Shown here: positions 24,117 to 28,768 of the stretch, piece by piece
How positions within the stretch are numbered: position 1 is the first letter of the stretch
How the letters are laid out: every line of letters begins with the position of its first letter
Assembly: GCF_002356115.1 (NCBI RefSeq)
Contig: NZ_AP014836.1
Location: 868,001-932,000 of the forward strand
From: Candidatus Nitrosoglobus terrae
GTDB lineage: Bacteria > Pseudomonadota > Gammaproteobacteria > Nitrosococcales > Nitrosococcaceae
Reading direction: 5' to 3'
DNA length: 64,000 nucleotides
Made by a program: the position numbers and the translations under genes
The notes under the pieces: model-generated
Told to the model about the DNA's origin: nothing
Databases searched by the model: none
The model's input: the letters and a program-made list of their open reading frames with translations, nothing else

Positions 24117-24193
24117 CGGGGTATAGCGCAGTCTGGTAGCGCATCTGCTTTGGGAGCAGAGGGTCGGGGGTTCAAATCCCTCTACCCCGACCA
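24117..24193 (+). tRNA. tRNA-Pro (anticodon TGG)
   Basis: 77-nucleotide cloverleaf with acceptor CGGGGTA / TACCCCG, discriminator A and encoded CCA. D-arm AGCGCAGTCTGGTAGCGC, the seven-base anticodon loop TTTGGGA with TGG, and T-arm GGGGGTTCAAATCCCTC. First gene of the tRNA group. Confidence 0.97.
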
Positions 24194-24252
24194 GCCTATT
24201 GAAAAAGATAATGCCTGCTCTCCAGTTTATGGACTGCAAGGAAGCTGCCTAT

Positions 24253-24329
24253 GCGCCCGTAGCTCACACGGATAGAGCATCGGCCTTCTAAGCCGAGGGT
24301 AGCAGGTTCGAATCCTGCCGGGCGCGCCA
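24253..24329 (+). tRNA. tRNA-Arg (anticodon TCT)
   Basis: 77 nucleotides; acceptor GCGCCCG / CGGGCGC, discriminator G, encoded CCA. Anticodon loop CTTCTAA gives TCT (reads AGA/AGG). T-arm GCAGGTTCGAATCCTGC is standard. It lies 59 bases after tRNA-Pro and is probably cotranscribed. Confidence 0.97.
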
Positions 24330-26572: not shown

Positions 26573-26649
26573 GGTGGGCGTAGCTCAGTTGGTAGAGCGC
26601 AGGATTGTGGCTCCTGTGGTCGTGGGTTCAAGTCCCATCGCTCACCCCA
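26573..26649 (+). tRNA. tRNA-His (anticodon GTG)
   Basis: Acceptor GTGGGCG (26574-26580) with CGCTCAC, encoded CCA, and the extra 5' G at 26573 that pairs with C73, a feature of tRNA-His. Anticodon stem CAGGA / TCCTG, loop TTGTGGC. Confidence 0.97.
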
Positions 26650-26673
26650 AATTAGAGACAAGGTTAATTATTG

Positions 26674-26749
<76 letters not shown>

Positions 26750-26871: not shown

Positions 26872-26925
26872 ACACCTTTCGCGCTATTTAATTTTGCGCT
26901 TACCAATTATCATCATAGGGAAAAA

Positions 26926-28626
26926 TTGCTGGCAGAAAAACCAAAGCCGTTTATAAAATGGGTCGGCGGAAAAAGACAGCTACTTAAGCAATTTCGAGAT
27001 CTTAAATTATACCCACCAGAAGGGTTTAATCCCCTCACAAATACTTACTTTGAGCCGTTTGTGGGCGGCGGCGCTGTTTTTTTTGATTTGCTCCCGCAAA
27101 AGGCAGCATTATCCGATCTCAACCAAGAATTGGTCATCACTTACAACGTGATAAAAAATGAGGTGGATGGGCTGATTAAATCCCTCAAAAAACATCCCTA
27201 CCACAAGGAATATTATTTAAACATTCGCGCAAAGAAAGTTGAGGATTTATCTCATATTGAGATTGCTTCGCGCTTCATTTATCTCAATCGCACCGGTTTT
27301 AACGGTCTGTATCGCGTCAATAAGCGTGGCGAATTTAATGTGCCTTTGGGTCGTTACACTCATCCTCTCATTTGTGATGAAGAAAACCTACACTGTGTTT
27401 CTAAAGTGCTACAAAATACTACAATAAAATGCCAAGACTACAAAGAAGTATTAAAGCAAGCAAAGAAGGGAGATTTTATCTACTTCGATCCCCCCTATTT
27501 TCCTATGAGCAAAACGGCCTCGTTCACTGCCTATACCGCGGCGGGCTTTTTAGAAAAAGAACAGCTAGCACTACGAGATACTTTCGTAGCGTTATCCAAA
27601 AGAGGCTGTTTTGTCATGTTATCCAACTCAGATACGCCTTTTATCAATGAAATATATTCAGGTATTCAAGGCGTAAAAATTAATCAAATGATGGCCGCTC
27701 GGGCAATCAATTCAAATGCCGCTAGGCGGGGAAAGATAACAGAGCTGTTAATAACCAACTACCAGATGCTAAAGAAAGATTTCAACTATTTAGTTTCAAC
27801 ATTTAAAAGCTCAATCAAAACTTGGGATTACTTTGTAAATTGGAGCAAGGTATTTTCTAACAGCTCCGAATTGGAAATAGTATTAAACAAATTGAACTAC
27901 CTACTTGGAAAAGAAAACCTCAAAGAGGAATTTACTAAGCTTTACAACACTAATCCCGACATCGTTGGAGCATTGCCCGTATTGTTAGCGGTGCGCGAGA
28001 ACACGCTTGAAGTTTTTGATAAAGAAACCAAAAATTCAGAATTTTTTGATTTTTCTGGCCAAGAAAAAGGGGCAGAAAAGTATTTTGAGTTTTTAGATAA
28101 ATCGGGTCTTGTGCGGCTGTTCCAAAAGGGCGGAATTAAAAATCTCGTTGATTATGTTTTGGGTGTTGAGGTTGGGCTAGATAGTAATGGTCGGAAAAAT
28201 CGCGGCGGTTCATTGATGGAAAAAACTGTGGGGGTATTTCTCGCTGATTTTTGTAAACAAAACAGCTTTGAATATCTACCACAGGCACGGGCAAGTACAA
28301 TCAAAGCAAAGTGGAGCTTTGATGTCAAAGTAGATAAATCAGAAAGAAGTTTTGACTTTGCTATTTATAACCCAAAGACCAATAAGCTAAAATTATTTGA
28401 AGCCAACTTTTATAATGGCGGTGGCTCAAAACTAAAAACGGTGTGCGGAGAATTCAGAAGTCTTTACGATGAGCTTAGAGCACAAAACATAGATTTTATT
28501 TGGATTACCGACGGACTAGGTTGGCGTACGGCAAAACGCCCGCTTGAGGAAACCTATAACCATAACGAATATATTTTTAATCTCAAGATGCTAGAAACAG
28601 GAATTTTAAGTGAGCTGGTATGGTAG
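26926..28626 (+). CDS. Fused Dam-type adenine methyltransferase and DpnII-type restriction endonuclease (GATC)
   Basis: One 566-residue polypeptide carrying both halves of a type II restriction-modification system. Residues 1-283 are a D12-class N6-adenine methyltransferase: FIKWVGGKRQLL at 9-20 and FEPFVGGGAVFFDL at 42-55 bind S-adenosylmethionine, and DPPY at 188-191 is catalytic motif IV. Residues about 285-566 match the DpnII/MboI-type endonuclease: GVEVGLDSNGRKNRGG (413-428), FDF with Asp477, FEANFYNGGGSKL (491-503) with Glu492, and ITDGLGW near 527-533. The expected target is GATC. The start is TTG with TAGGG upstream; an in-frame TAG lies just before. There is no separate methylase, endonuclease or controller gene nearby. 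Both domains look intact. Target and activity are inferred from family. Confidence 0.85.
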   Translation: MLAEKPKPFIKWVGGKRQLLKQFRDLKLYPPEGFNPLTNTYFEPFVGGGAVFFDLLPQKAALSDLNQELVITYNVIKNEVDGLIKSLKKHPYHKEYYLNIRAKKVEDLSHIEIASRFIYLNRTGFNGLYRVNKRGEFNVPLGRYTHPLICDEENLHCVSKVLQNTTIKCQDYKEVLKQAKKGDFIYFDPPYFPMSKTASFTAYTAAGFLEKEQLALRDTFVALSKRGCFVMLSNSDTPFINEIYSGIQGVKINQMMAARAINSNAARRGKITELLITNYQMLKKDFNYLVSTFKSSIKTWDYFVNWSKVFSNSSELEIVLNKLNYLLGKENLKEEFTKLYNTNPDIVGALPVLLAVRENTLEVFDKETKNSEFFDFSGQEKGAEKYFEFLDKSGLVRLFQKGGIKNLVDYVLGVEVGLDSNGRKNRGGSLMEKTVGVFLADFCKQNSFEYLPQARASTIKAKWSFDVKVDKSERSFDFAIYNPKTNKLKLFEANFYNGGGSKLKTVCGEFRSLYDELRAQNIDFIWITDGLGWRTAKRPLEETYNHNEYIFNLKMLETGILSELVW

Positions 28627-28694: not shown

Positions 28695-28768
28695 GCGGGT
28701 GTAGTTCAATGGTAGAACTTCAGCTTCCCAAGCTGATAGCGTGGGTTCGATTCCCATCACCCGCTCCA
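28695..28768 (+). tRNA. tRNA-Gly (anticodon CCC)
   Basis: 74 nucleotides; acceptor GCGGGTG / CACCCGC, discriminator T, encoded CCA. Anticodon loop TTCCCAA gives CCC. It lies 68 bases after the fused restriction-modification gene. Confidence 0.97.

What the first reader, a model, noticed from the sequence alone, without database searches (positions are those of the whole stretch)
26926..28626. Single-polypeptide GATC restriction-modification system: Dam-type methyltransferase fused to a DpnII-type endonuclease
Residues 1-283 carry D12-class adenine methyltransferase motifs (FVGGGAVFF, DPPY) and residues 285-566 a DpnII/MboI-type endonuclease (GLDSNGRKNRGG, FDF with Asp477, FEANFYNGGG with Glu492). 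The classic systems of these families (DpnII, MboI) use separate genes. Here one TTG-started frame carries both, so protection and cutting would be made in a fixed 1:1 ratio, which raises the question of how newly entered hosts survive. Either the nuclease is restrained within the fusion, or the host is already Dam-methylated. Whether the fusion is new to science I cannot tell without a search.
Basis: partly seen in the sequence, partly recalled or inferred. Interest (0 to 1): 0.75.

Follow-up and report, generated by a model that had tools for sequence, protein, structure and literature searches.

The report
GATC methylase-nuclease fused by stop-codon loss
A two-gene bacterial 'mark self, cut non-self' system for the DNA site GATC has been joined into one protein, apparently by a single-letter loss of the stop codon between the genes, in a bacterium that has lost its usual GATC-marking enzyme and so probably relies on this protein to mark its own DNA.

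Summary
One open frame (26926-28626, TTG start) encodes a complete D12/Dam-type methylase and a complete DpnII-type nuclease, with all conserved residues kept in both halves. The close relatives (up to 79% identical, mostly Patescibacteria) keep M and R as separate genes, most often followed by a second methylase. In the window the junction reads TAC-CAG-ATG; in relative L016 it reads TAT-TAG-ATG. So this fusion looks like a stop-codon loss (TAG to CAG) that left the nuclease's own ATG in place. The gene also lacks the ~40-residue N-terminal extension of these relatives, and the second methylase is gone. The architecture is not new: unrelated fusions exist in staphylococcal prophage-like contigs (WP_001286806.1) and in another viral contig (L138). 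The survival puzzle has a plausible answer: the host's order commonly carries Dam and MutH, so GATC would already have been methylated on arrival. Native dam is now deleted at its trxB locus in this genome while mutH remains, which leaves the fused protein as the only recognisable Dam-type GATC methylase. Activity, the fusion at protein level, and the base call at codon 280 are untested.

The parts
26926..28626 (+). Fused methylase-nuclease gene, 566 aa, TTG start
26917..26920 (+). AGGG, Shine-Dalgarno-like, 5 nt before the TTG
   Evidence: sequence
26926..27762 (+). Methylase half (residues 1-279), D12/Dam class; DPPY at 27487-27498
   Evidence: PF02086, TIGR00571, 2dpm
27763..27765 (+). CAG (Gln280) where close relatives have the methylase stop codon (TAA/TAG/TGA); L016 has TAG followed directly by ATG
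27766..27768 (+). ATG (Met281), at the place of the start codon of the separate nuclease gene in relatives
27766..28623 (+). Nuclease half (residues 281-566), DpnII family; Asp477 at 28354-28356, Glu492 at 28399-28401, Asn494 at 28405-28407
   Evidence: PF04556; conservation
26674..26749 (+). tRNA-Lys(CTT), left neighbour; four same-family genomes have nothing like the R-M gene after it
28695..28768 (+). tRNA-Gly(CCC), right neighbour; not found after tRNA-Lys in the four relatives

Best explanation
It is a horizontally acquired DpnII-type (GATC) restriction-modification cassette of the kind found in Patescibacteria (M1-R-M2). In this lineage it was stripped (5' extension of M1 and all of M2 lost), and M1 was joined in frame to R by loss of the intervening stop codon. 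The N half should methylate the adenine of GATC and the C half should cut unmethylated GATC. SHOWN: anatomy, intact motifs, junction, nesting in the Patescibacteria cassette clade, mainly synonymous change along the window lineage, absence of a native dam, presence of mutH. INFERRED: it is expressed mainly as the fusion, because the internal ATG has no Shine-Dalgarno and the stop codon needed for termination-reinitiation is gone; both halves are active; methylation precedes cutting because the methylase works as a monomer while the nuclease must dimerise; the cassette could establish because the ancestor was Dam-methylated; it now supplies the GATC mark read by MutH.
For: Intact domains. All (near-)invariant residues kept among 33 homologues. 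Stop codons at the equivalent place in the close relatives, TAG-ATG in L016 against CAG-ATG here. Window inside the Patescibacteria clade in both M and R trees, near L014. Window-lineage codon changes 49 synonymous to 13 non-synonymous in M and 33 to 12 in R. Second methylase present in most relatives, absent here. Native dam next to trxB in four same-family genomes but gone, without detectable remnant, at that locus in this genome. The other D12 genes belong to EcoRV-like and NotI-like systems. MutH in 20 of 20 genomes including this one. Model: two folded domains joined by a low-confidence stretch at 281-284. Precedent: engineered RM.Eco29kI kept 80% of methylase and 33% of nuclease activity (PMC3039593).
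Against: No expression, methylome or enzyme data. The single base at codon 280 could be an assembly error. In the Eco29kI study, removing the stop but keeping the second gene's ATG gave only the separate second protein (PMC3039593), and the ATG is kept here. The R half shows somewhat more amino-acid change than its L014 sister (12 of 45 changed codons against 5 of 44), so nuclease function may be relaxing. GATC is not avoided in the window (314 seen, 314.7 expected), which neither supports nor excludes long-standing cutting.
Confidence: 0.6

Rival explanations
1. Two proteins are still made: internal initiation at ATG 27766 gives a separate nuclease, and the fusion is a minor product.
For: The ATG is intact and in the place of the relatives' start. 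In the Eco29kI system a retained second ATG gave the separate protein rather than the fusion (PMC3039593).
Against: No Shine-Dalgarno-like run before the ATG (AATAACCAACTACCAG). The overlapping or abutting gene ends of relatives suggest coupled translation, which needs the lost stop codon.
Confidence: 0.25
2. The nuclease half is on its way out: fusion and loss of M2 are steps in turning an R-M system into a plain GATC methylase (Dam substitute), with little or no cutting left.
For: Dam absent, MutH kept. Extra amino-acid change in the R half. G013 and G407 of the order carry DpnM-type methylases (48% identical) with no DpnII-nuclease match.
Against: All conserved nuclease residues are kept and the R half still shows mainly synonymous change.
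Confidence: 0.2
3. Assembly or sequencing error: the true codon 280 is TAG and there are two ordinary genes.
For: One base separates the window from the L016 junction. No second isolate or reads were available.
Against: The genome is near-complete in 2 contigs. Other structural changes to the cassette (lost extension, lost M2) show that it has really been remodelled. No other defect in the 566-codon frame.
Confidence: 0.1

Closest known systems
DpnII R-M system (M.DpnII, 2dpm; PF04556 nuclease)
   Same: Same two protein families, conserved catalytic residues, predicted GATC
   Different: Classic systems use separate genes and a second methylase; here one frame, no second methylase
Three-gene M1-R-M2 cassettes of Patescibacteria (L014, L015, L016 and others)
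   Same: Up to 79% identical; window nests among them in both trees
   Different: Stop codon between M1 and R, ~40-residue N-terminal extension on M1, M2 present in most
Staphylococcal prophage-type fusion WP_001286806.1 (L057, L112-L118) and viral contig L138
   Same: D12 methylase followed by DpnII nuclease in one frame
   Different: Only ~34% identical to the window; different branches of the nuclease tree; no ATG at the junction, so probably older, independent fusions
Type IIC enzymes; BtgZI in particular
   Same: Both activities in one chain; BtgZI too has an N-terminal alpha-class methylase and a C-terminal nuclease (PMC4081073)
   Different: Natural Type IIC enzymes in the reviews cut away from mostly asymmetric sites; this one should cut at a short palindrome
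Engineered RM.Eco29kI (PMC3039593)
   Same: Fusion of head-to-tail R-M genes by removing the stop; palindromic site cut within
   Different: Made in the laboratory, R before M, m5C methylase

Membership tests
DpnII-type R-M system | D12 GATC-type adenine methylase | tested here: met
   PF02086, TIGR00571 above cutoff, best PDB 2dpm
DpnII-type R-M system | DpnII-family nuclease with conserved catalytic residues | tested here: met
   PF04556 307.8 bits against cutoff 23; Asp477, Glu492, Asn494 kept
DpnII-type R-M system | Methylase and nuclease as separate genes | tested here: not met
   single frame; separate in close relatives
DpnII-type R-M system | Recognises and cuts unmethylated GATC | not testable with these tools
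   inferred from homology only
Type IIC | Methylase and nuclease in one polypeptide | tested here: inconclusive
   met at the DNA level; whether the fusion is the protein made is untested, internal ATG kept
Type IIG | Nuclease stimulated by AdoMet | not testable with these tools
   needs an enzyme assay; not expected from the DpnII family
Orphan Dam | Solitary methylase without a nuclease | tested here: not met
   nuclease domain intact; native dam lost from the trxB locus

The most novel reading that the evidence does not exclude
A restriction enzyme fused to its methylase has replaced Dam as the only GATC methylase of a MutH-bearing bacterium, so the mark that guides mismatch repair is now made by a protein that also cuts unmarked GATC; loss of the gene would cost both repair and self-protection.
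Probability: 0.35. Interest if true: 0.62.

Novelty: new variant of a known kind. Interest (0 to 1): 0.45.

Why it matters
Fusion of head-to-tail R-M genes was proposed in 2011 as the way Type IIC enzymes arise, supported by an engineered example (PMC3039593). This looks like a natural case caught early, one base from the unfused form, with the second start codon still in place. It also links the fusion to a host that lost Dam but kept MutH, so it bears on how a solitary housekeeping methylase can be replaced by a restriction system.

Tried and rejected
Fusion as a conserved feature of the close family: rejected, no close relative is fused; ranges such as '1-566' hid a stop codon. Fusobacterium (H6) and Psychrobacter (H9) single-piece matches: rejected, in-frame stop or two genes. 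Phage origin of this copy: no viral-contig relative with this query and no phage record covering 80%. GATC avoidance as a sign of age: none in the window. SeqA: absent in all 20 genomes tested, so no SeqA link. Dam-like second methylase in the genome: the candidates belong to EcoRV-like and NotI-like systems. A three-sequence codon count for R used a wrong frame for L020 and was redone. The fold search gave only methylase-type matches, nothing convincing for the nuclease half. A regulatory domain in the N-terminal extension of the relatives: no family found.

Full report
What is there. The frame 26926-28626 is open for 566 codons. Residues 12-255 are a D12 adenine methylase and 285-562 a DpnII nuclease; the first half belongs to the Dam subfamily, and M.DpnII (2dpm) is its best solved relative by sequence and by fold. 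An AlphaFold2 model (mean pLDDT 77) shows two folded domains joined by a low-confidence stretch at 281-284. Among 33 homologues every (near-)invariant residue of both halves is present in the window, including DPPY, Asp477, Glu492 and Asn494.

How the fusion arose. A genome-collection scan gave 43 relatives, 27 of them close (roughly 66-79% identical) and mostly from Patescibacteria. Reading their frames shows that none is fused: M and R are separate, often abutting or overlapping genes. At the junction the methylase typically ends ...NY followed by TAA, TAG or TGA; in L016 the order is TAT-TAG-ATG, in the window TAC-CAG-ATG. The window therefore differs from an unfused arrangement by one critical base, and the ATG of the nuclease is still there at 27766. 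The ancestor's exact stop codon is not known; L014, the nearest relative, has TAA and one more codon before the ATG.

Other changes to the cassette. The close relatives carry about 40 extra residues before EKPKPF, of no recognised family; in the window the homology stops at LLAEKPKPF, and the TTG used as start aligns with an internal Ile/Leu codon of that extension. Several homologues outside this clade, and M.DpnII itself, lack it, so the core enzyme need not suffer. Most relatives also have a second methylase right after the nuclease; the window has none. In M and R trees the window lies inside the Patescibacteria clade, near L014, a contig on which the cassette follows rpsL-rpsG-fusA genes. 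Transfer from that pool into the window's lineage is the simplest reading. The gene sits between tRNA-Lys and tRNA-Gly; four same-family genomes have the tRNA-His-tRNA-Lys pair but neither the gene nor the tRNA-Gly after it.

Is it maintained? On the window lineage, codons changed relative to both L014 and an outgroup are mainly synonymous: 49 to 13 in M and 33 to 12 in R; for L014 33 to 7 and 39 to 5. This shows constraint on both halves averaged over the lineage. It cannot isolate the time since fusion, and the R half may be slightly relaxed.

Host context. Four same-family genomes have a dam gene next to trxB. In the window's genome and in G002 the trxB locus has no dam and no detectable remnant. 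The other D12 genes of this genome sit with an EcoRV-like nuclease (short, profile positions 2-160 of 244) and a NotI-like nuclease. MutH is present in all 20 genomes tested, SeqA in none. G002, also without dam, carries a DpnII nuclease with a different methylase; G013 and G407 carry DpnM-type methylases without a nuclease match. In the same family dam is missing in exactly the two genomes with a DpnII nuclease, but six genomes from three genera are too few to call this more than suggestive; the two losses may also be one event. PF01555-type methylases of this genome were not tested for GATC specificity. That the host is a gammaproteobacterium is inferred from gene content (MutH), not named by the tools.

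How it most likely works. A cell whose ancestor was Dam-methylated can take up a GATC system without harm. Methylases mostly act as monomers and nucleases as dimers, so a Type IIC protein at low concentration should methylate before it cuts (PMC12707154). In the engineered RM.Eco29kI fusion both activities survived, with the nuclease down threefold and phage protection down a hundredfold (PMC3039593). The same study warns that a retained second start codon may yield the separate protein; here that ATG lacks a Shine-Dalgarno, so I favour the fusion, but this is inference.

Novelty. The architecture exists elsewhere: a 552-residue protein on an S. aureus plasmid (WP_001286806.1), its 87-100% identical copies in viral contigs (one copy, L119, is frameshifted), and a 639-residue frame in viral contig L138. 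They are about 34% identical to the window and fall elsewhere in the nuclease tree, so fusion has probably happened at least three times. I found no paper describing a natural DpnII-type fusion, but REBASE could not be searched and the library holds only open-licence papers.

Noticed in passing
G000:C1:457900-459900 (L085 4153-5891): EcoRV-like R-M: D12 methylase beside an EcoRV-family nuclease of 184 aa that matches only profile positions 2-160 of 244, so possibly truncated; a CcrM-like methylase gene is close by (L085 2602-3774).
   Followed up: partly
G000:C1:646100-648000 (L086): NotI-family nuclease next to a D12 methylase of 293 aa, a further R-M system of this genome.
   Followed up: partly
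L087 5228-6958 (G002): Same-family genome without dam carries a DpnII nuclease followed by a PF01555-like methylase, and no D12 methylase was found.
   Followed up: partly
window 24117-24329 and 26574-26749: tRNA Pro-Arg-His-Lys run, contiguous in G004, is split here by about 2.2 kb with two similar small secreted-looking proteins and a carbonic anhydrase: a second insertion at the same tRNA cluster.
   Followed up: no
L138 1990-3906: Viral contig with an independent DpnM-DpnII fusion of 639 aa.
   Followed up: partly
G009:C18:11582-12084: Dam of this reduced genome (1.1 Mb) appears broken into short frames while MutH is kept.
   Followed up: no
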